Part shown: in pieces, positions 30,023 through 61,612 of the stretch
How the letters are laid out: the number at the start of each line of letters is the position of its first letter
Position numbering within the stretch: the stretch's first letter is position 1
Source of the DNA: Bryopsis sp. KO-2023
Taxonomy: Eukaryota; Chlorophyta; Ulvophyceae; Bryopsidales; Bryopsidaceae
Assembly (NCBI GenBank): GCA_030272585.1
Contig: BSYQ01000008.1
Location: 4,464,001 to 4,528,000, forward strand
Length of the DNA: 64,000 nucleotides
Reading direction: 5' to 3'
Program-made: the position numbers and the translations under genes
The notes under the pieces: generated by a model
Told to the model about the DNA's origin: nothing
What the model saw: only the letters and a program-made list of their open reading frames with translations
Database searches by the model: none

Positions 30023-33000
30023 ATGGCTGATTCATCCAAACAGGAGAACGAGGGGGAGAAACTAAAAGAGATAAAATCGCTTGTGGAGGTGAGTGTCTAT
30101 ACACGTGATGATTCGCTGCCTCGCAGAATGAACGGGTTCTCTGCGTGGAGGAATGACTGTGTCTGACCGTTTCATTGCAGATTCTCCCTCAGGAGCTTGG
30201 TGCATGCTTGCTGGATCATCCAGAGCTGGGCAATCTTGTGGAGGTAAAATCCCTAGTATCAGTAGTAGTCGAAATCCAAATATGAAAACCTGAACGTCGA
30301 AATTCACCATGACAGGAAACAGAAACTAGAAAAGAACTGCCATGTTGAGAATTCACCATGATCAGCAACCATCGTGCTTTTGTGAAAAAATTGTAAGGTC
30401 TAGAGACTTTTTTTTTATCAATTTTGTTGAGGATACCTCCAAAATACTCCATGTGGCTGAGCAGATCGACTTCCATTGGATTTATAGCTGGCATTGGCAA
30501 TTAAAAAACCCACATGGCTGGTGTGGCGATTGTAGGTTGTGCTGGACCTTGGCCGAAAGCCTCAAGCCAATTTTGAAAACTGTCAGGAGAGAATCGAAGC
30601 TGTGGTGGTATGTACAATCGATATATCGATCAATAATCACAACCCACAGCCACAAGAGGAGCCATCACCCTCCATGTTGCTTGAACAAAGAATAAAAAAT
30701 AATAATTGATTTTTTTTTCTTGATTTTTTTGCACCTGAGATTGTTTTAGGTGCAAAACTTTTTTTTTCTAATAATCAATCGAGGGTATCTATTCCTATTT
30801 GCTCCCCTAGCTGTTTCCCAACATGTCGTTCCGTTTATGTACCAAAAATTGCCGAACGTTTTTTGATGATCCTCTCTCCTGATTTCTTGATTTTTTCTTA
30901 GTTTTTTTAATTTTTTGATTCGCTGATTTGGGGTCCAGGTGAGCGAGGAGGATTTACAGCATGTGGTGGCACGTGTGGGTGAATTTGGTCAAGACAACCG
31001 GGCTGGAATCGAAGGCTCCCTGCACAGAGTCAGCTGCCTTCGGAATCGAAGCGGGGTGGTAATAGGATTGACTCTTGCGGTCGGAAAGTCTGTCATGGGG
31101 CCTGCTGCCATGCTGTATGACATTCTCCAGGGTAAATACTTGTGCCACCGACAATTAAAAAACATGTCATTGATTGAGACTTGAAACAGGCTCCAGGTGT
31201 ACTGCTATGAGATCTGGAAAGTTGTGTGTGGTGTTGATATCCATCCATCGATTGTGGCTAATGAGAAAATGCCATGGAACCTACTCTCAAGTGTAAATAG
31301 ATTCCAGATTACACATAACTAAAAAATGCCGATGCTTGTGTTATGGGTACCGCCTGTATTTTTCACTTCTTGTCCTGTCTGACATGGATTCTATCGTGTG
31401 AATCAGAGAGGAAATCAATTTTGTTGCTGGGGCCTCCTGGAGCAGGAAAGACAACTGTCCTGCGGGATATGGCGAGAGTTTTGAGCGAAAAAATGGGCAG
31501 AAACGTCATGATCGTGGATACATCCAATGAAATTGGGGGTTATGGTAACATCCCCCACCCTTTCATCGGGAAGGCCAGGCGCATGCAGGTTCCCAACATC
31601 GCCGAGCAGTACAAGGTCATGGTAGGGCATCCAGTCAGACATAGCACATCAGCTTCAATTTCAATTTTTTTTGGTTTTTTTTTCCGACTCCTTGCAAAAA
31701 TACGATTTTTCCTTTATCCTGCATATCAATTTAAAAGAAATAAAAAAATAACAATAATAAAATATGAATATATATTAAAAAAAGTGTGTGACTGGTCAGG
31801 TTGAGGCAGTACAGAACCACCGGCCAGAAGTAGTGATGGTGGATGAGGTGGGGCGGCGAGAAGAGGCTGATGCATGCCGTTCGATCAGTGAAAGAGGAGT
31901 CCAGATCATTGCTTCTGTACATGGGCACACTTTGGAAAACCTGGTCAAGAATCCTCAACTCGTAGGCTTGGTAGGAGGCATCCAGAATATCACCATCGGT
32001 GATATGACAGCCATCAGGAGGGCTGGGGATATAGCTTGCATGAGGAAGACGGTGAGGATTTTCAAACAAACGGTTTCTTAGGGGGTTGGGGTGCTGGCTA
32101 GCTTTTACTGTGGGTTGTAATGATTGATTGATTGATTGATTATATATATATCCCCGAAAAAAAAGAATCAAAACCCCTGTTGGCTAGCTTTTACTGTGGG
32201 TTGTAATCATTGATTGATTGATTGATCATATATATATCCCCGAAAAAAAAAAAAATCAAAACCCCTGTTGGATTGGGAGCATGGCTCGGTTTTTTCTGAT
32301 CAAAGGCACCAATGTTCAAATGATAGGTCAAAGAAAGAGAGGGGCCACCGGCATTTGATGTCTTGGTGGAAATGCGGAGCCGGGATGAGTGGTTGATTCA
32401 CGATGTGGAGACCTCCGTGGATCATATCTTGAAAGGCCGAGAAATGATGGTCGAGGTAGGAATGCAGGCTGTATTATGAGTCTCAGTTATGTGATTTTAT
32501 TTTTAATATCTGAATTATCAGGAAGAAATATAAAAATAAATAAATGATCGGAAAAAAATTGGGACATTGTGGGCGATGCTGGTGGGCACACAGCAGCAGC
32601 CACACGTGTTCAATGGTTTTCAGAAAGTGTCCATTTTTTGCCAGGTTCGATCTCGGGATTCGACCACTGGTGAAAGTCACCGACGTTCCGTGGTTTACAC
32701 CCATTCAAGCATTTCAGGCATGCCCCCTCAAATACCCACCAAAAAAGGTAAATGGCTGCAGTTTGGCTGTGAGTGTTATGTTTCTTCGGCTCGATTCAAG
32801 TTTTTCTTTCTCTTCTTTTTTTTTAGATAAAAAAGACTGTCTCAAGATTGGGCCTTCCGATCAGATGGATATTTCAGATGAAATCACTGGGGTTACCGCA
32901 CCCAAACCTGCTGATCTGCCCGTTCGAACAGGTAATGGCTGCGGTTTGGCTGTGAGTGCTATGTTTCTTCAACTTGATTCGATCCAAGTTTTGCCTTCTC

Positions 33001-34242
33001 TTTATTTCTGTAGATAAAGACTGTCCAGGGAGGCCTTGCGTTAGGATGAATGGTCCAGATGGTGAAATCACTGGGGTTACTGCACCCAAACCTGCTGATA
33101 TACCCGTCCGAAGAGTTAATGGCTGCATGAGTAAAAAGAGAGAACTGGGGTGCCTCAGTAAGACCATAAGAGTGGGGGAGTGTGAACACAGCACCAGGTT
33201 CAGAGCCGCTTTGGAGGAGCTCATCTCATCAAGTATTGACATCACAACTATTTCTGGGCACGCGCTTGCAAAATTGATGCTGGGGGTAATGAGAATTGCG
33301 AGAAGAAAAATCAAAATTCTCCTGTCGAAACCTTTCCAACAAACAAACACACAGTGCACACGCGCCACTCGGGGCTCGGATCTCGGTCCGTTGATCGAGA
33401 TAATGAAGCCATGGGTGGGAGGTGTGGCGGACAAACATGGGGTGCATCTCAAGGAGAGTGAAAGGGAATGTGCAGCCAATCTCTTGGCTGCTCATGTGGC
33501 TCTATGCACTCAAGATCGGATTCGTTCCTTGCCGAAAAAGAAAAAGGGATCTGGGGCATCACCGGACAGGGAAGAGTTGTTGCACGGGTTAGGGCCTCTA
33601 CTTAGGGACATGATCAAGATCCGGAAACCTCAATTGGATGGAAAAGAACTTGAAACTGTTGGGGAAAGGCTGCTCGAGACGGTGTCGACTGCGTTGGAGA
33701 ACGTGTGGAAGAATCCTGGGGACATCGGCGGCAACGAATCCACTTCGATTGTCGGAACGGACGCGAAGGAGGTTTTTATACATTTCAAGAAAATAGTTAA
33801 GGTTGCTGTGCAGGGCGTCTGGGGGGTGGGAAAGAAGAAAATAGAAGCGGAAGCTTTGAGTCTGACCACGATCGCGATCAACTCCATCGAGACACACAGT
33901 GCAGAATTGCCGGTGCAGAATGCTGAAGCCTTGGATTTGACTGCAATCTCAATGGGCTCCATTGAGACGCACAGTGCAGAATTGCCAGTGCAAAATGCTG
34001 AAGCCTTGAATTTGACCGCAATCTCAATGGGCTCCATTGAGACACGTTCTGCAGATTTGCCAGTGCAAAATGCTGAAGCCTTGAATTTGACCGCAATCTC
34101 AATGGGCTCCATTGAGACACATTCTGCAGATTTGCCAGTGGAAAATACAGCAGGTGGTACCGTGGTGCGTGACAGTGTGTTTGATGGGAGTAGAAATGAC
34201 CATGGTGAAAGTGCACAAGAGTGTAAGGGTGTATTGGAGTAG
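30023..34242 (+). CDS. ycf45: Ycf45/SPD1-type AAA ATPase with long repeat-bearing extension
   Basis: Ten exons close in phase: 30023-30088, 30181-30243, 30536-30607, 30939-31131, 31407-31621, 31800-32051, 32327-32455, 32645-32747, 32827-32931, 33014-34242; total 808 residues. Residues 10-350 match the Ycf45 family (relatives of the sporulation ATPase SpoIIIAA): ILPQELGACLLDHPELGNLV, then VVLDLGRKPQ, Walker A GPPGAGKTT (140-148), DTSNEIGGYG, Walker B VVMVDE (214-219) and the sensor ASVHG. In plants the nuclear homologue serves plastid development; in red algae the gene is often plastid-encoded. No clear transit peptide precedes MADSSKQENEGEKLK, so targeting is uncertain. The last 460 residues have no known domain: two duplicated short exons, a helical part, and four 25-residue repeats. 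The extension could in principle be a separate gene, but every junction keeps the frame. Confidence 0.88.
32096..32271 (+). repeat. Tandem duplication of 86-90 bases in an intron
   Basis: Two near-identical copies, 32,096-32,181 and 32,182-32,271, each hold GGCTAGCTTTTACTGTGGG, a (GATT)n run, a (TA)n run, a CCCCG and an A run. They differ mostly in run lengths, so the event is recent. They lie in the intron after exon 31800-32051. Confidence 0.9.
32708..33130 (+). repeat. Tandem duplication of an exon plus its intron
   Basis: The ends of exons 9 and 10 are near-identical (EITGVTAPKPAD and then LPVR or IPVR). Each is followed by a near-identical donor side: GTAATGGCTGCGG after exon 9 and GTTAATGGCTGCATG after copy 10; GTAAATGGCTGCAG follows exon 8. 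In the last copy the former intron start is read as protein (VNGCMSKK). The unit is about 190 bases. Confidence 0.8.
33847..34146 (+). repeat. Four 75-base coding repeats
   Basis: Four in-frame 75-base units encode 25 residues each, with consensus AEALNLTAISMGSIETHSA followed by ELPVQN. Units 2-4 are almost identical and the first has diverged. They lie near the C-terminus of the Ycf45-like protein. Confidence 0.93.
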
Positions 34243-37585: not shown

Positions 37586-39084
37586 CTAAGGATCCTGGCC
37601 AAAAGATTTGATGTCAATATCGCTGCCCACAGCACCATCAGAAGTAGCAGTGGCTCCACTCTTTATCGTGTTGCTAGCAAGAGTGGTGGTTGAAGTGCTG
37701 GTATCCGAAGTTGTCGCCGATCCACTCACACTGGCCCCATTTCCTGCAAAACCAGCCTTGGATGCTCCAATTGCAGTGCTCAACGATCCTGCAACACAAG
37801 CCAGTTTTTATCTCTCCAAAAAAAAGCACCAAAACGAGGATATTGATTCATCAGTTATTTGATATTAACACCGACCTGGACTGACTACTTGGCCGAATGT
37901 GTTGGTGCTTGTAGAGCCAACGGTTGGTCCAGAGCCGCCTTGAACACTGGTGCCAAGCTTTGCCGATCCCACAGCAAGACCTGGTCCCTTCTGAGTAAAG
38001 GTGGTAGTGGATCCAGTCGAAGTGGTCACTCCAGATCCAGACTGGGATCCAGCATCACCTTTGGTGATCGCAGTAGAAAGCACACCTGCACATCAAATCA
38101 AAAAAATTATAAAATCTGCACCTCAAAAAGCAGAAATCTGGAAAAAAGGAGTGGTCCAAAAAAAGTGGCATCATGGACAGAGAGCTAGGTGCGGCTTGCC
38201 TGGAGTTGGACTGGCAGGAGGAACTGGAGCGCCAGGAGTCAAGACAGGCAAGGCTGGCACAGCAGGAGTGTTGATAGGAACAGGGGGGGTTTGAGGCACC
38301 ACAGGAACTGGAATTGGCTGCGTTGGAGGCTTCACTGGAGGTGCTGGGGTTGGGGAAGGAGGCGATGGGGTAGGAGGGGAAGGGGCAGGTGGGGTTGGGG
38401 TAGGAGGGGAAGGGGTAGGTGGGGTTGGGGAAGGTGGCGAGGGGGTAGGCGGAGATGGGGTAGGTGGAGATGGCGTAGGTGGGGTTGGGGAAGGAGGGGA
38501 AGGCGTAGGTGGTGTGGGGGAAGGGGGGGTCGGGGAAGGAGGAGATGGGGGTGGAGAGCCGCCAGGAGGATTGTTGACCGGAGGCTTCGGGAAACACCTG
38601 TTCACCACACGACAACTCAATCGTACGAATCCGCAGAGCTCCCAGTGCGGAAACACTTGATATTATGAACAGCTGCGATGCCTACCTTCCAACATCAGGC
38701 CCAGCACAAGTCAGCTTGTCGTTTTTGCAGTCCCTCCCTGCGCAGCATTTGTTGCCTTGAAATTTCCCGCAGCCCGCTGCGAACAGAGCCACCGAAACAG
38801 ATCAGGACGACTTCTAGATTTCACAGACGATGGGGTGATACCCGAATCGAACAAAGCAACAGCACACACACAACAGAGCTGAATCAACAGCCGCAAAAGT
38901 TCAAACAGAAAAAAACAAGAATTTTGGCTTCCTAATTGCCACGGATCGGCGGCGAACGGAATTCCTGACTACGCAATGGCAGCAACCTACGTTTCTTGAT
39001 CAACAAATCCCTGGAGCCATCAACATGCACAGACGCCAGGCACAGCAATGCGACCAGCAGTGGGATCCAAATCTTGCACGCCAT
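37586..39084 (-). CDS. Secreted proline-rich wall-type glycoprotein
   Basis: Five exons close in phase (39084-38991, 38776-38686, 38597-38200, 38085-37876, 37788-37586) to give 331 residues. MACKIWIPLLVALLCLASVH is a clear signal peptide. A Cys-rich module follows (CGKFQGNKCCAGRDC, then LTCAGP). Next is a tract of about 85 residues built of SPTPPSP/TPPTPSPP units, the kind of sequence that is hydroxylated and glycosylated in algal walls (pherophorin and extensin-like proteins). The C-terminal two exons encode Ser/Thr/Gly-rich repeats and end KSFGQDP; both start with a VLSTAI or SLSTAI motif and so look like duplicated exons. The intron after 38200 needs a GC donor (CCAG then GCAAGC) to keep the frame. 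It probably acts outside the cell in the wall or mucilage. Confidence 0.83.
38290..38560 (-). repeat. Pro-Ser/Pro-Thr coding repeat
   Basis: Degenerate 9- to 30-base units (GGTGGGGTTGGGG-like on the plus strand) encode PPSPTPP and related blocks. The opposite strand is open as an Arg/Trp/Gly-rich shadow. Confidence 0.9.
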
Positions 39085-53138: not shown

Positions 53139-56100
53139 ATGGAACAGAGTGTAGGGACTGTCTCGCGGACGCTCGCAGTAGCGGCGCTGCTCGTGATCGC
53201 AATAGATATGGCTAATGCTTTACCAGGGCACTCGCGTAACGGCACTTTTACCCAAATCATACCCATTGCATACCCAAGTACCCAAACAATACCCAGAATA
53301 TACCCAGACCGTACCCAGCATTGGGTACGTTTTGGGTAATTACCCACCTCACTACCCAAACTGTACCCAAACCGTACCCAATCCATGCCCAATAGTGGGT
53401 AGAATTGGGTAAGTACCGCACACATACCACAGACCTATGGTAAGCGAGATATGCTTGGTATGCCGTGGGTACGCGTTGGGTAGTACCCAATGTTTACCCA
53501 AAAAATTATAGGGATGGGTACGTGTTGGGTAAACATTGGGTACTTTTTGGCAAAACTACTTCCTATGTACCCAAACTTTACCCAGATGTGCCCAAAACGT
53601 ACCCAAATGTGGTACGTAATGGGTATGATGTGGGTAGTACCCAATATTGACCCAAAAAAGTTCAGGGATGGGTATGTTTTGGGTATTCTTTGGCAAAACT
53701 ACTTCCTATGTACCCAAACATTACCCAGACATGCCCAAAGCATACCCACCGTGGCGGGGACAGGTGGCACGTATTGGGTATGTTTTGGGTACGCTTTGGC
53801 AGATCTGGTTGCGCACCTTTTAGACGTTGCCCAAATCGAACCCAAATGCGGCACAAACGCACTCATTACGCATGTAGGCCTCATTAAACTTGCCGAAGAT
53901 CTCGGTCTGCGGTGTTGAACAACGACAACGTTTCTGGTCGCGCTTTCTCGCCCCGCTTCAGAGTCGCGCTTGCGATGCGACTACGAGCTCGCCGTCCCCG
54001 CTTCAGAGTCGCGCTTGCGATGCGACCTGGAAGCATTGGACGGTGCCTTGGGCCTCTGATGAAAACGCTGGTATCACCCTGAGGATCTATCGCTGCCATG
54101 CCAGTGTCAATGGGCACAGGCTCTGATACTTTCGTGGAGGCGGTCGGCATCCTCTCTACGTCAAGTCTTCACCCACGTGGTCGGTGATGTTCCGCTTCTC
54201 TTCCCAGCATGTGCAATATTCTAGGTCAGGTAACATAATAAAACTGCACAAGGTTTAAGCAGCAACATGAATAGGGATATTTCATCTAAAAAAAGTATTA
54301 TGATGTTGTCGTTGCCTTTCTGATTTTTTTTTTGGCCCTAAAGAGAGGCCTGTGAACTTTTTGTAGAGGGGGAGGGGCTCCCTAAAATGAAATTTGTTTC
54401 AGGTGTTTGTAGGGCGAGCATATGTGCTTGCCTTGGTTGAGAAAAAGCCTTCTTCAGGACATATTGGAACAGAGAGGATGAACCTGCATTCTGTGTGGCC
54501 TTGCACACGAGAGAATAACATAGTATCATTTGCACTGCCCAGGTACAGAGCAAAAGTTGGTGTTGTTGAGTCACAATCCTGATATCAAGGTGGAAAATAG
54601 GTGGGTTTTTGTGATCCACAGAAAGCACCTACTGTCTTTGGTGCTTTGTCTATCTATTGTGCTTTGTGGGACCTTTTTGCTTCTGGAGTTTTGACCCATT
54701 TGGAGTCTTCTCAAAGAGTTGTGATGCATGAGACCCTTTGTCATTTCTATGATGTTTGTTGTCTATCATGGCGCTGAAGGTATGACTAAGATTCAAACTG
54801 TGTTCATGAATTGGTTGGTGTCATTGCTGAGAGAGGCAAGGAGCCAAATTTTTGGTCATCAAAGTGTTCTTGCATATACACAGTTTTCCCGAATTAGTGC
54901 CATTTTCTGGTCGTGGGTGCGGCCAGGGAGTGAACTTCGTAATCCCAGCAACAGCATGTGTGTTGATGAGACCACTCGATTGCAGACGTCAACCATGTTT
55001 TCAAAATCCTCAATGGAAGCGCCCTTGTCGGATCCAACATCAGCAAGTTTGCAAGAGCCTCCCGGTTTCTGGAGCATAAAATCTTCAACTCTTACCACAT
55101 CGAGGATGCAATGCCGAGGTATCTGAAGAAATTCGAAAACAGGGATTTGTCCCTGTGCAACTCCATAATCTTGAAAAACACATAAGATGCAGCTGAAGCC
55201 TTGACTCGCTGCAAAGAATACATAAGTGATTCAGGGTGGGTCTTGATTGGACAAAGAGTGTCCAATTGAACTGTGCAACAAGTGAAGAGATTCCCCCCCC
55301 CCCCCTTCCCCAACTGAATAGGAAATATGTGCAAACCACTCCCTCCCAAACAGTTCTTTTCTTGTGTGATAGTGTATTCACACATATGGTGGCAAACAGA
55401 GCTCTTTGATTTTCTAGATATATGTATCCATGTTCCTTCTTTAGCCATATATTTTATCAACGACCCTTCAGGCCCCACACAGATCCATTCTTGCAGATAC
55501 TCAGATGGAACAGCGTGTTTCGTAGAGGGGATCTAATCGGATCCCAGTCTTGCCAGTGGGAGATCTCATTTTGAAAAGAATTAACAAAATACTTGCAAAA
55601 ATACAACAGCTGAAAGGTGCCAACCTTGTGTGTGTGTGCATTTCCTTTGATGCAGAAAAGAAAAGTCAGAGGACTGGGTTCAAGATATTAAATATCCAAG
55701 ACAAGGCTAGCAATTTCCGAAAAGAACTGAGGGGGACGAGGTGGTTGAAGACTCTTCAAAGGGAATTTGACTCGACACCCCTTTTTGAGAATTGAGGTCC
55801 AAAAAAAATTTGAATGAGGGATGTTGCTTGTTTTGATGTGCAAAAATATATGCACTTGTATGCATTTGGAGGTTGAGGGCTGGTTGTGAATAGAGGAACA
55901 AGTGTTCTTGTAAATTATTTCTTATTTGTGATTTTTGTTGTGTTGGGCAGATTGGGTCTGAACTAGACACCACCCGATTTGTACCTGATCTATAACAAAT
56001 GATTGACAGCGGGTGGTTGCTCAAAGCGTACCCAATAGATACCCAATATGCGTTTATGGGTAAATATAGGGTACTTTCTGAAAATACCCAATACATGCCC

Positions 56101-59100
56101 ATTCAGTGTGGGTAAGGATTGGGTAGTACCCGGTACATACCCACCAACTTTGGGTATCTTTTGGGTACTACCCAATTCGTACCCGTCTCGGTGTGGGTAT
56201 GTATTGGGTACTACCCAATTCATACCCACCAACTTTGGGTATCTTTCGGGTACTACCCGGTACATACCCACCAACTTTGGGTATCTTTAGGGTACTACCC
56301 AATTCGTACCCACCAACTTTGGGTATCTTTCGGGTACTACCCAATTTGTACCCACCAACTTTGGGTATTTTTTGGGTACTACCAAATTCGTACCCAACGA
56401 GCTCGACAACTACCCAATCCATACCCAAATCATACCCATAGAATACCCAACTGGGGTATACCCAAATATACCCCAAATTACCCAATTCATGCCATTAAAA
56501 AACGGGTAGCCCGCGGGTAGTTTTGGGTACGAATTGGGTAATTTTCGTAACGTGAGTGGGGGCGGGCATGATTCGTGTGGGGGGATATTCCGCCAAGAAC
56601 GGCGACATCCCTGGTTTTCCGACATATTTCGTGGATCGAAATTGCATGGAATTTCAATTCAGCGGCTGGGGTGCGCGGCATATGCTCGAAATGGCGGCGG
56701 GCACCTCTTCTGCGCTGAGTGAGGAGAGCCGCGGGAACGCCGAAAAAGGGAAAGAACTGATCAAAAGGATATTCGACGCAGCGGACGACTGCGGTCTGAA
56801 GGTGTGCAGGTTCCTTGGCCACGGTTATTCGCAGCAGAAGCTGGTTCTGCAGCCAAAAGAAGGGGTTTACAACGAGGAGGCCCTGGCGGCGCTCGATTGG
56901 GTGGTCGCGGAAGCGGGCGCGCGTGGTTTGAAGATTGTGTTGACGTTTGCTGATAATTGGGGGGAGGTGGATGGGAGGCTGTGGTACGCTGAGAAATTCG
57001 CGGGAAAGAAACCCATGGATTTCTACACTGATGAAGCGATCAAGCAGGCGTACAAGAATCATGTCAAGTTCATCCTGGAGAGGAGAAACGGGGCCACAGG
57101 TGATCCCAGCCGAGAGTATCTGCGCCGATTGTCCATGGTGCCTTGCGAAAGCTACCTCCTTGGATCTGTCAACTCTCGACCGTTACAGGAGTCGTAACGC
57201 CGTATGCTTATAAGCTAATTAAAGTGGTAGTTCCTGTGCTTGATTCCACTTGGGCCCCTTTGTTTCGTTTCTGCGAGGAGATGAGCTGTGCGTGGGTTCA
57301 GGTGTTCGCTACAGAGATAATCCCACCATCCTGGCATGGAATCTACTCAACCAGCCACGATGCGAGTGTCCGTTCCCGGGCGGCGCAGAATCCTGCCAGG
57401 CGCAGTGCGCAAGAATCATCAACGCATGGGTGAAGGAAATGTCTCTCTGGGTGAAACAGCACGACCCCAACCACATGGTGGCGGTGGGGGAAGAAGGCTT
57501 CTACTCCTCATCCACATGGAAACACTGGGTCAACCCGGATGCCTTTTTCGTCGACGGAATTCCGTGGGCGCGCAACAGCGGGCAGGATTCGCTGACGGAT
57601 AACGGTGCGCCGACGATCGACTACATCGGGGTGCAGTCGTGGCCGGATAGGTGGGGATTACCCGGACTGTGGTTTCAGAAGATATGGCTGCGAGAGCATA
57701 TCAACGACGCATGGTGGCTTCGGAAACCCCTCGTGGTGGAGGATTTCGGGAAACTCGTTTTCAGGGACAACGCCGCCCTGCGTCGCAGTAGAAGAGATCC
57801 TTTTTTCGAGGCAATGTACAGGTAGTTGATTAAGGGGGGGGGGGGTACCCACTGTTGACTTGAAAAAGCTGCCTTCAAATAAACCACATCCTATATATAG
57901 ATATAAGTAATGATTTCCCCTCTCTTTTCTTTTTTTTCTTTTTTTTTGGGGGTGGGTGGGTGGATAAGCGTTTCCCTCTGCTTTGGCTGAACAGGAAATT
58001 TGAGGAATCCAGGAAATTCAAGGGGCCTCTGAAAGGTTTGATTTTTTCGAATCTGGATGCATCCAGCAGCTCACCCCGCAGCCCAACGTCTGTCCGCCTT
58101 TCCGATTCGACCTGGACTAAAATAATCAAACCCCAAACCGAGAAACTCATCAGCGATGCAGAAAAGGAGGGGTTGGTTTCCGGGTGCGTGCCCGGGTCGA
58201 GTCGATCTCTTGATGCAGTATTCCTTGAAGGAACGAATATATATTACATGAGCAATGGACCGAATTTGGTGGCCACGTCGGACTGGGGAGACATTGCGGC
58301 GCCGCTTGTGGGGGTTTCCATGGACGAGTGCATTGATGCATGCGAATGGAGGGGCGGATCTTGCCGTCAAATCAGGTGAATGAACGCTTTTGATTTTTTT
58401 ATAGCTTCAATGGGTTGTCAGAGCGTCAAAATATACATGAGTGCATGCCAAGGAATGCCATCATTATATATTTATTTAATTTTTTTAATTTTTTTCAAAT
58501 TCATATTTGGATATGATGTTGATGTTTCATCAGATATAACCCTCTTTTGGATGGGGGCACTTGCGTGTTGAGAGCCAATGGGGAAAGGAAATTCAAATGG
58601 AGTCCAGAGGGATGGCAGACGTTTTTCCGAATGGTCGGCAGCAACAAATGCAAGGACAAGAAATGCAAGCTGTGTGATCAATCTTTTTTCCCCAGGTACA
58701 ATGTGATTTTTTTAAGAAAAGAATTTTTTTTTTTTTGGGGGGGGGGGAGGAATTTTGGTTACTGGTTGCACACTGCAATACATCTTCTTTTTTTTTGGGG
58801 GGGGGGGGGGCATAGCAGAGCCACAAATTCCCGATGGGTTTTGGGAATCTCAATGGACAGTGCCACCAAAAATACAATACACAAGAATTAAACAAAAAAG
58901 ACATATTAAAGAATTTTATTTATTACAGTTGCCTTGGTCCAATTATTATTATTGTAGCTACCATTCAATCACTTAATTGGATAAAACTTGTTGACAATCT
59001 ATGAATTAATCGCTGAACTCCTTGCTTTTTTGAAATCTGTCGATGTTGTGAGTTTTTTTATTTCGTGGCAGCTTTGCTCCAGCACTCAATCAAGAAAATA

Positions 59101-60066
59101 TGAATGGATGAGTTGAGACCTTGGTGTTGCCCTGCAGGTGTTTGAAATGCAAAACAGGCAGGCTGGTTTTGGGTGATGATCACCTCCCGAAATGTGAGTG
59201 ATTTATTTTTTTTGCTACGAACGATTCTTTCATTTACTGTATGGATTTAATCTGATTACATTATTTTGGAAAAACCCAAAAAAATCGAAAAACAAATGAT
59301 GGGAAAATTCATGAAAGCTTTTTTATTATTATTTTGAAAGGAGGGTTGCTCAATTCTTGAAAGTGGGATAAAATGGGGGCATCAAAATAAGCCTTAAAAA
59401 AAAAGAGTGTGTTTGTGTGTGTCAACAAAAAATGTGGGCAAGGTGCAAGATGGAAAAGCAATGAATAATATTTGGATACAAATGATGGAGAGATGTATGA
59501 TTATGGGTTTTTTTTTTCTTCTTTGATGGAGGGAGAGGTATTTGGGATTGCATGAGTACATATCTTCTTTTTTCTTTCGGATAATTTCCTGTGGCGGCCT
59601 AAAATCAACCTTTTTGGCAAGATGCAATAACTGTTTTGGTAAAAGGATCAGAGTGGGGCTACTGCTGTTTTCCTTTTTTCTTTGTGGGTTAATTTCTATA
59701 AATAAAAATGGAAAAAATAGCAACTGAGGATGGGTTTGGAGGGAACTTAACTCGTCTTTGCATGTCAATCATGCATATTTTTTTGGCACGTTACTTTGGA
59801 AATGTCAAATAAAATCCAGGGAAGAATTTTTTCCATCCCCAAACTGTGGAGCGGGGGTGGATTGTCAGGATGATATGTGAGTATTTTTATCTTCTTTCGT
59901 GGTGGGGATTTTTTTTTCTTTCTTTTTGATCAAGTGTTTTACTTCTTTTGTTATTATCATCTGAAGTGGGTGTGGGGACCAGTGGTTGAAGAATCAGATG
60001 AAATCGTTCAGAAATAATGGAAGGGTGTCGGAAGCTTCTTCAATCCTTCATGGAGCAGTTCTTTGA
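53139..60066 (+). CDS. Secreted GH5 (mannanase-like) protein, acid/base residue replaced
   Basis: Exons 53139-53235, 56557-57099, 57302-57821, 57995-58375, 58534-58695, 59138-59193, then 59820-59876 and 59967-60066. All junctions close in phase except the one between 59193 and 59820, where a small exon is probably missing. Exon 1 gives a signal peptide (LAVAALLVIAIDMANALPG). Exons 2-3 give a GH5 (beta/alpha)8 domain most like GH5_7 beta-mannanases: CGLKVCRFLGHGYS, NPTILAWNLLNQPRCE, and KPLVVEDFGK with the nucleophile Glu360. The acid/base Glu of the N-E-P motif is Gln231, and the later conserved His is also Gln (GVQSWPDRW). The C-terminal part has two Cys-rich modules (MDECIDACEWRGGSC; SNKCKDKKCKLCDQ) of PAN/WSC flavour, suggesting carbohydrate binding. 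Intron 1 is the 3.3-kb element B. Confidence 0.85.
53226..53228. repeat. Putative target-site duplication GGG (left copy)
   Basis: GGG before the left end of element B, matched by GGG at 56,559-56,561. A 3-base duplication is the rule for CACTA elements. Because the sequence is a simple G run, the match has limited weight. Confidence 0.55.
53246..53850. repeat. Left subterminal array of element B
   Basis: Dozens of TACCCAA, TTGGGTA and close variants stand in both orientations, spaced 10-25 bases and often as back-to-back palindromes. Longer sub-units recur, for example the stretch with TTTGGCAAAACTACTTCC at 53,545-53,565 and again at 53,690-53,710. Confidence 0.9.
53940..54030. repeat. Short GC-rich tandem repeat inside element B
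   Basis: A unit of about 50 bases containing CGCTTCAGAGTCGCGCTTG and GATGCGAC occurs twice in direct order just inside the left array. Confidence 0.85.
54859..55478 (-). CDS. Cargo ORF pieces of element B, minus strand
   Basis: Two frames, 55,478-55,092 and 55,098-54,859, read protein-like sequence (ASYVFFKIMELHRDKSLFSN; ADVGSDKGASIEDFENMVDV) with a C run between exon-like parts. Another open piece lies at 54,628-54,338. They may be exons or remnants of one protein of the element. No transposase motif is recognised. Confidence 0.3.
55550..55795 (+). CDS. Cargo ORF of element B, plus strand
   Basis: An 81-codon frame contains GDLILKRINKILAKIQQLKG and RKELRGTRWLKTLQREF and ends at a stop at 55,795. 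It is rich in Lys, Arg and Leu, like a small nucleic-acid-binding or coiled-coil protein. No family is recognised and no clear ATG opens the frame. Confidence 0.3.
   Translation: MPVGDLILKRINKILAKIQQLKGANLVCVCISFDAEKKSQRTGFKILNIQDKASNFRKELRGTRWLKTLQREFDSTPLFEN
56025..56545. repeat. Right subterminal array of element B, 42-base period
   Basis: This is the most regular array in the window. A 42-base unit with ACCCACCAACTTTGGGTATC and GGGTACTACCCAATTCGT repeats six to seven times between 56,135 and 56,395. Because 42 is a multiple of 3 and the motif is palindromic, both strands are open as 14-residue repeats; this is a by-product, not a protein. Confidence 0.93.
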
Positions 60067-60874: not shown

Positions 60875-61612
60875 CACTATGGGAAATCGCGTTCTGTGCG
60901 GGGTTAAATCGGGACCCCGCACAGAAGCCTGAAACCCGTGTTTTGCCTCGCACAGGGCCAGAATAACCCCGCACGGCTCTGTTCCCCGGTTTGGGCCGGT
61001 TTTGTGCGGGGTCCCAATTTAACCCCGCACAGACTGGAACCCCGCACACAGAACCTGACGTCTTTCCCGTTGTGGGACCCCGCACAGATGGATCATAGCC
61101 CCGTACAGTGTGCGGGGTACCCTATCCTCCGTACGGGGGTGCCGTGCGGGGTGTATATAAAAGACGTCGGATTCCGTGCACGGGGTTCCAGCCTGTGCGG
61201 GGTAAAATTGGGACCCCGCACAAAACCCGACCAAACCGGGGAACAGAGCCGTGCGGGGTGTCGTTTCCTTTGTGCACGGGTTTCACTTCCCTGTGCGAAT
61301 CATGGGCCACCTCGCACACGAGGTCCAGGCCCCCGCACAACTGTGCGGGGTCGCTGTGCGGGGTCATTGTGAGAAGCGTATGCGGGCTCCTTGTGTGTGT
61401 GTGCGGGGTGACTGTGCGGGCTCCTTGTGTGTGTGTGCGGGGTGTTCGTCACAGCCCTGTGCGGGCTCCTTGTGTGTGTGCGCGAGGTGACTGTGCGGGC
61501 TCCTTCTGTGTGTGTGCGGGGTGACTGTGCGGGCTCCTTCTGTGTGTGTGCGGGGTGATTATTACAGCCCTGTGCGGGCTCCTTCTGTGTGTGTGCGGGG
61601 TGATTGTAGAAA
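60875..61612. mobile_element. Element C (one end): CACTA terminus and CCCCGCACAG array
   Basis: The stretch begins CACTATGGGAAATCGCG. It runs into about 700 bases packed with CCCCGCACAG and its complement CTGTGCGGGG, first as palindromic pairs, then (61,380-61,605) as direct units containing GTGTGTGTGCGGGGTGA and TGTGCGGGCTCCTT. The same motif returns at 63,790-63,870. No matching inverted terminus (ending TAGTG) is seen in the window, so the element is either truncated, extends past the right edge, or is an array left behind. The layout matches the subterminal arrays of elements A and B. Confidence 0.5.

What the first reader, a model, noticed from the sequence alone, without database searches (positions are those of the whole stretch)
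53226..56561. A CACTA-like transposon that serves as a self-made intron and keeps the reading frame
Seen directly: inverted ends (CACTCGCGTAACG against CACTCACGTTACG), GGG on both sides, and GH5 coding frame running up to both edges. A GT sits 7 bases inside the left end and an AG ends 2 bases inside the right end. If the element is spliced at these sites, 9 element bases plus the 3-base duplication remain: exactly four codons (His-Ser-Leu-Gly) between ALPG and AGMIRVGG. Any insertion of such an element with a 3-base duplication would thus be frame-neutral wherever it lands. Known introners in algae also carry splice sites in or next to their inverted ends, but they are usually short and non-autonomous; a 3.3-kb CACTA-type element with its own cargo behaving this way would be new to me. 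Inference: this is a family of intron-generating transposons.
Basis: partly seen in the sequence, partly recalled or inferred. Interest (0 to 1): 0.93.

Follow-up and report, generated by a model that had tools for sequence, protein, structure and literature searches.

The report
Young CACTA-like transposon splitting algal gene
A 3.3-kb jumping-gene family member with matching inverted ends sits inside a carbohydrate-enzyme gene of the green alga Bryopsis; its ends hold weak splice-like letters that would keep the reading frame, but no transcript was seen and the insertion likely just interrupts the gene.

Summary
Window 53229-56558 is a 3,330-bp element with 13-bp inverted ends, a 3-bp GGG duplication, dense TACCCAA/TTGGGTA arrays near both ends, a GT 7 bases in and an AG 2 bases from the far end. 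It is one of 14 end-to-end copies found in the genome of Bryopsis sp. KO-2023, 14 of 14 with 3-bp duplications. Only one of them carries a transposase-like gene, so this copy is probably non-autonomous. It splits the signal-peptide exon of a GH5 gene from its catalytic exon; an intact paralogue reads straight through. Another family copy splits a dienelactone hydrolase (DLH) exon. The 'self-made intron' part is weakly supported. The frame arithmetic is right, but about 18% of random CACT-type ends would give it. The end donor scores like a random GT, the end acceptor worse. Stronger in-frame pairs exist at both loci. The deposited gene models do not use the end-to-end splice: one starts inside the element and splices to a host acceptor, the other omits the first exons. 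Splice sites in En/Spm ends, and a 12-bp, four-codon introner, are already in print. No RNA evidence could be reached. Verdict: new CACTA-like family; intron role unproven.

The parts
53226..53228 (.). left copy of target-site duplication GGG
53229..53241 (+). left inverted end CACTCGCGTAACG ('G end')
   Evidence: generic recalled matrix
53249..53870 (.). left subterminal array of TACCCAA / TTGGGTA units (approximate limits)
   Evidence: 25 TACCCAA and 20 TTGGGTA inside the element against 5 and 2 in the rest of the window
53325..53326 (+). rival internal donor TGG|GTACGT, in frame with an acceptor whose exon starts at 56598
   Evidence: best-scoring of 7 in-frame pairs
54209..54229 (+). element-internal ATGTGCAATATTCTAGGTCAG followed by donor GTAACA; the same stretch in the C10:3488518 copy is the first coding exon of the deposited DLH model BSKO_11354
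56027..56545 (.). right subterminal array (approximate limits)
56546..56558 (-). right inverted end CACTCACGTTACG ('A end')
56559..56561 (.). right copy of target-site duplication GGG
53139..53228 (+). GH5 host gene, first coding piece (predicted signal peptide MEQSV...NALPG)
56562..57099 (+). GH5 host gene, second coding piece (AGMIRVGG...), cut from the first by the element
57302..57821 (+). GH5 host gene, third coding exon; deposited model BSKO_09593 starts inside it
57995..59198 (+). GH5 host gene, remaining exons (57995-58375, 58534-58695, 59138-59198)
   Evidence: exact spliced alignment of P0001

Best explanation
A 3.3-kb CACTA-like DNA transposon, one of 14 end-to-end copies found in this genome, lies inside the coding sequence of a GH5 gene of the green alga Bryopsis sp. 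KO-2023, and it likely interrupts that gene rather than being cleanly spliced out at its ends. Shown: inverted ends, 3-bp duplications at 14 of 14 copies, subterminal arrays, pairs of near-identical copies, one copy with a multi-exon transposase-like gene, and an uninterrupted GH5 paralogue. Inferred: that this transposase acts in trans on the shared ends (cut-and-paste, 3-bp staggered target), that insertion is not aimed at exons, and that the GT and AG at the ends are by-products of the end sequence. The AG comes with any end that starts CACT; the GT is one of the about 18% of chance arrangements that keep frame. Low-level splicing at the ends, or stronger splicing between an element-internal donor and a host acceptor, may still occur and would be measurable.
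For: Family, ends, duplications. Youth: C10:3488518 and C2:2453906 differ at 1 of 2,538 bp, C15:1414547 and C3:3398731 are identical over 3,587 bp, and this copy matches C3:2219216 at 99.92% and 100% over its two parts. One transposase-like gene, in C2:8447791-8461212: its pieces match there at 92-100%, the next best place in the genome at 41%, among 66 scored candidates; only this copy of the 14 matches. Two public proteins align to my model at 32% over about 600 aa. Empty-site paralogue: C9:2992937-2993542 aligns to host residues 6-206 with no stop; P0002 and P0003 align without gap at the site. DLH: 5 of 5 relatives aligned over the site have no gap there, where the end-to-end splice would add four residues inside VLVHQIFGL. 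Weak end splice sites and better rivals. Deposited models without the end-to-end splice.
Against: No RNA was seen, so clean splicing is not excluded. The splice matrix is a generic one that I recalled, checked on only six introns from deposited models. The deposited models may be ab initio; I could not learn whether RNA-seq supported them (paper not held). The host frame stays open through the GH5 exons read. The GH5 site may bear extra residues: paralogues L048 and L050 are open across it but have a longer stretch between signal peptide and GEG/GSG-VRVGG. Insertions are not depleted in long open frames: 5 of 14 in frames of 180 codons or more against 22% of positions, and 4 of 14 at 230 or more against 10-15%, which a harmless intron would also give.
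Confidence: 0.7

Rival explanations
1. One reading: the element would be removed as an intron exactly at the GT and AG in its inverted ends, leaving 12 nt (His-Ser-Leu-Gly) and a working GH5 enzyme.
For: Sites and frame exist. Both orientations offer GT and AG at the same offsets (ends listed). GH5 paralogues L048 and L050 carry extra residues near this place, so four more may be borne. At DLH the end donor joined to the host acceptor CACCAG|AT ranks 5 of 75 in-frame pairs. The ends of Spm elements are said to be recognised as intron ends at times (passage in PMC4219821), and an Aureococcus introner adds 12 bp and four residues (PMC9860276 section 7).
Against: Weak sites; the end-to-end pair ranks 4 of 7 in-frame pairs at GH5 and 47 of 75 at DLH; deposited models differ; four extra residues would fall inside the VLVHQIFGL stretch of DLH.
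Confidence: 0.1
2. The element is spliced out, wholly or partly, but through other sites: an element-internal donor (such as TGG|GTACGT at 53325, or CAG|GTAACA after the internal mini-exon) to an acceptor in the host exon just downstream.
For: The best-scoring in-frame GH5 pair is donor 53325 with exon start 56598. The deposited DLH model starts in the element and joins CAG|GTAACA to the host CACCAG|AT; that intron ends 7 bases past the element. Both of its sites score well (98.5th and 88.8th percentile).
Against: The DLH model drops the upstream exon and may be a prediction only; no transcript seen.
Confidence: 0.2
3. End-guided removal from RNA: the two ends pair in the transcript and a repair-like splicing route (the 'SOS splicing' of DNA transposons in animals, recalled; none of the 10 papers listed holds the term) would cut the element out with little regard to splice consensus.
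For: The 60-nt ends can form a duplex of -55.5 kcal/mol here, and -53.8 to -64.3 across 14 copies and both orientations.
Against: End-to-end pairing follows from inverted ends and is not special: 39 cross pairs against a mean of 23 and a maximum of 54 in 100 mononucleotide shuffles. No evidence here that algae have the route.
Confidence: 0.05

Closest known systems
CACTA / En-Spm DNA transposons of plants (e.g. soybean TgmR, maize Spm)
   Same: Ends starting CACT, 3-bp duplications, repeats near both ends in both orientations, non-autonomous copies beside one copy with a multi-exon transposase-like gene; end sequences said to act as intron ends at times (TgmR paper PMC4219821, passages seen; the maize A2 paper was seen only as a reference title there).
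   Different: Ends read CACTC, not CACTA; the transposase-like protein matches no Pfam model above its cut-off.
Introners (Gozashti et al. 2022, PMC9860276, passages and the whole of section 7 read)
   Same: Splice letters carried in or beside element ends; an Aureococcus family carries both sites and adds 12 bp, four residues.
   Different: Introner families there have median lengths of 30-654 nt and are introns; here copies are 2.5-16 kb, 14 in number, and none is shown to be spliced.
CACTA elements that carry gene fragments (soybean Tgm-Express, PMC1947982, title and start of abstract seen)
   Same: The transposase-bearing copy holds GH5-like gene pieces and a weak PAN-domain match below the curated cut-off.
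   Different: Only fragments were seen; expression unknown.

Membership tests
CACTA / En-Spm (CMC) transposons | Inverted ends beginning CACTA (or CACTG; recalled) | tested here: inconclusive
   All 33 long-end matches begin CACTC, as did the patterns searched; the first four letters fit, the fifth does not
CACTA / En-Spm (CMC) transposons | 3-bp target-site duplication | tested here: met
   14 of 14 end-to-end copies
CACTA / En-Spm (CMC) transposons | Subterminal repeat motifs in both orientations | tested here: met
   This copy; ends of the other 13 full copies:
CACTA / En-Spm (CMC) transposons | Tnp2-type transposase recognised by Pfam Transposase_21 or kin | tested here: not met
   No transposase family at E up to 5; resemblance of motifs is recalled only. 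Filed as CACTA-like, not as a member
Introners | Element carries or recruits splice sites at its edges | tested here: met
   GT and AG present but weak
Introners | Copies are spliced introns in transcripts | not testable with these tools
   No RNA data; deposited models do not show it at the two clear coding insertions
Introners | Many copies sitting in coding exons of genes | tested here: inconclusive
   2 of 14 clear (GH5, DLH); 3 more lie in open frames of 187-247 codons without a Pfam match; the other 9 lie in frames of 146 codons or less
Introners | Short elements (family medians 30-654 nt) | tested here: not met
   2,538-15,995 bp; four of the five longest hold later insertions or other long extra stretches, the fifth the transposase gene

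The most novel reading that the evidence does not exclude
A CACTA-like transposon family of kilobase size, moved by one transposase copy, whose inverted ends are splice sites in both orientations and leave exactly four codons, so that each exon insertion becomes a frame-keeping intron: full-size introners caught in the act, with recent copies in GH5 and dienelactone hydrolase exons.
Probability: 0.1. Interest if true: 0.75.

Novelty: new member of a known kind. Interest (0 to 1): 0.35.

Why it matters
If the ends are used for splicing, this would be a very recent case of a full-size transposon making introns, with pairs of copies differing at 0-2 positions, and would let intron birth be watched in one culturable alga. 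If not, it is a recently active CACTA-like family in Bryopsis that likely disrupts genes and confuses their annotation, and may serve as a mobile-element tag.

Tried and rejected
Rejected: chance ends (controls). Rejected: an ordinary old intron at this site, because GH5 paralogue C9:2992937-2993542 and proteins P0002 and P0003 run through it; paralogue stretches L048 and L050 are also open across it, with a longer linker, and for L049 the script picked another frame, so it says nothing. Rejected: cargo in this copy (transposase and GH5 queries hit only C2:8447791 among the 14 copies). Rejected as evidence: open host frame (copies too young); frame-neutral arithmetic (17.7% by chance).

Led nowhere: structure prediction of the transposase relative P0025 (4-row alignment, mean pLDDT 36, so no fold search was made); PDB sequence search (no match); NCBIfam (two hits far below cut-off); codon-usage scoring of insertion sites (6 training frames, weak separation; GH5, DLH and C15:1414547 were the only three of 14 whose best frame had no stop in 240 bp); a paper search for introners together with CACTA (one yeast paper, listing only); a chlorarachniophyte paper (PMC12730881, passages), read while the organism was still unknown and not relevant. 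My first exon model of the transposase skipped an exon that deposited protein BSKO_02870 has; I put it in. One alignment row, and the translations, were shifted by one base by my error; redone.
Full report
What is there. The element runs from 53229 to 56558 (3,330 bp), with 13-bp ends CACTCGCGTAACG and CACTCACGTTACG, GGG on both sides and dense TACCCAA/TTGGGTA units near both ends: 25 and 20 inside against 5 and 2 in the rest of the window.

Where it is. A protein search with the host gene returned BSKO_09593 of Bryopsis sp. KO-2023 on a contig of 6,109,207 bp, the length of the window's contig C8. So the genome is that of a siphonous green alga. Relatives in that search carry PF00150 (recalled as the GH5 cellulase family).

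The family. In the 91.09-Mb assembly the 13-mer pattern gives 34 places, 11 in the backwards control; 32 are element ends and two are not. Longer ends give 18 and 15 matches, 0 in the controls; 32 of the 33 are exact, and one, at C3:1529195, has two changes that remove the GT. They form 14 end-to-end copies of 2,538 to 15,995 bp, 14 of 14 with identical 3-bp flanks, plus five unpaired ends. Of those five, C4, C8:5755987 and C13 continue as partial copies and C12:1506965 shows family sequence in pieces; C3:1529195 was not fetched. Some copies are young: C10:3488518 and C2:2453906 differ at 1 of 2,538 positions, C15:1414547 and C3:3398731 are identical over 3,587, and this copy matches C3:2219216 at 99.92% and 100% either side of a 6.5-kb extra stretch. 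Other pairs differ by 8-12% or more in their shared parts; this copy and the DLH copy are about 91-92% alike there.

The motor. Among the 14 copies only C2:8447791-8461212 matches a transposase-like gene. In the whole genome the next best place has 41% identity (19 matches from 66 scored candidates). My exon model and deposited protein BSKO_02870 share two introns and the donor of a third; the deposited one has an extra exon that I then added. Two public proteins, P0024 and P0025, align at 32% over about 600 residues. No Pfam or NCBIfam model fits above its cut-off, so CACTA membership of the protein is not shown; the motif likeness is recalled. This window copy has no match to it and is therefore probably non-autonomous (inference).

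Host genes. GH5: the paralogue at C9:2992937-2993542 matches host residues 6-206, across the site, in one open frame, and P0002 and P0003 show no gap there. Two more paralogues (L048, L050) are open across the site but with a longer linker, so this spot varies in length. The second clear coding insertion is C10:3488518 in a dienelactone hydrolase (Pfam PF01738, E 6.9e-16). Relatives P0014-P0017 and P0019 read through the site (5 of 5 aligned; P0018 starts after it, P0020-P0022 were not fetched). In both genes the G end lies upstream. Three further insertions lie in open frames of 187-247 codons (C2:2453906, C8:418189, C15:1414547) without a Pfam match, and are unresolved, like the other nine. 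Five of 14 lie in frames of 180 codons or more against 22% of window and flank positions, 4 of 14 at 230 or more against 15% and 10%, and 8 of 14 at 100 or more against 67-68%: no clear avoidance or preference.

Is it an intron? For: the letters are there, in both orientations, and 7 + 2 + 3 = 12 bases stay. Against, first, chance: the AG two bases from the edge is simply the other strand of CACT, and 17.7% of random CACT+9 ends offer a frame-neutral GT. Second, strength: with a generic recalled matrix the end donors lie at the 68.5th and 48.7th percentile of all window GTs and the end acceptors at the 13.6th and 30.6th of all AGs, while six introns from deposited models score 93.6-99.9 and 81.7-98.0. 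Third, rivals: within the stretches scanned, the end-to-end pair ranks 4th of 7 in-frame pairs at GH5 and 47th of 75 at DLH; the end donor with a host acceptor ranks 5th at DLH. Fourth, deposited models: BSKO_09593 starts in exon 3; BSKO_11354 starts with MCNILG coded inside the element and joins donor CAG|GTAACA to the host acceptor CACCAG|AT. Whether RNA supported these models is unknown. Fifth, the retained bases would make a stop in 25% of phase-2 sites and 4.7% of phase-0 sites, none in phase 1, and would put four residues into VLVHQIFGL of DLH.

Precedents. PMC4219821 (passages) says that the ends of Spm elements sometimes mimic splice sites and are recognised as intron ends, citing a 1990 paper whose title names a novel intron made from a dSpm in maize A2 (title only; not held). 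PMC9860276 (passages and section 7) describes an Aureococcus introner that carries both splice sites and adds 12 bp, hence four residues. So the arithmetic and the principle are known. The searches (open-licence papers, listings of the best 15-25 each or fewer) listed no paper titled as a CACTA-type introner family; that is not proof of absence.

Verdict. A real, recent, CACTA-like family in a green alga, with two clear coding-exon hits. The intron reading stays possible, is testable in one RT-PCR, and is not the likelier reading now.

Noticed in passing
G000:C2:8447791-8461212 (L035, L036): The transposase-bearing copy holds GH5-like pieces (about 9.96-10.97 kb in element coordinates, tblastn E down to 1.6e-13) and a weak PAN match near 11.1 kb: the same gene type as this window copy's host gene; looks like captured host sequence.
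   Followed up: partly
window 54209-54229 and the same stretch in 6 further copies: A mini-exon-like stretch (preceded by CCCAGC, followed by GTAACA) is kept in 7 of 14 copies and opens the deposited DLH protein BSKO_11354.
   Followed up: partly
G000:C3:2219216, C6:551960, C6:1167585, C12:2458968: Long copies contain extra stretches of 6-14 kb with long open frames (up to 1,778 codons) that look like nested retroelements.
   Followed up: no
L028 (C15:1411547-1421133), upstream flank: Open frames of 675 and 356 codons, retroelement-like by eye, lie beside an insertion identical to the C3:3398731 copy.
   Followed up: no
G000:C14:525003-525456, C1:3186976-3187839: Weaker matches (71-77%) to the interior of this element away from the 14 copies: older copies or a source of the interior.
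   Followed up: no
window 38345-38550 and 61381-61607: Two G-rich minisatellites (15/45-bp and 34/113-bp units).
   Followed up: no
window 33882-34146: A 75-bp tandem repeat, 3.5 copies, whole number of codons, inside a long open frame (32956-34239).
   Followed up: no
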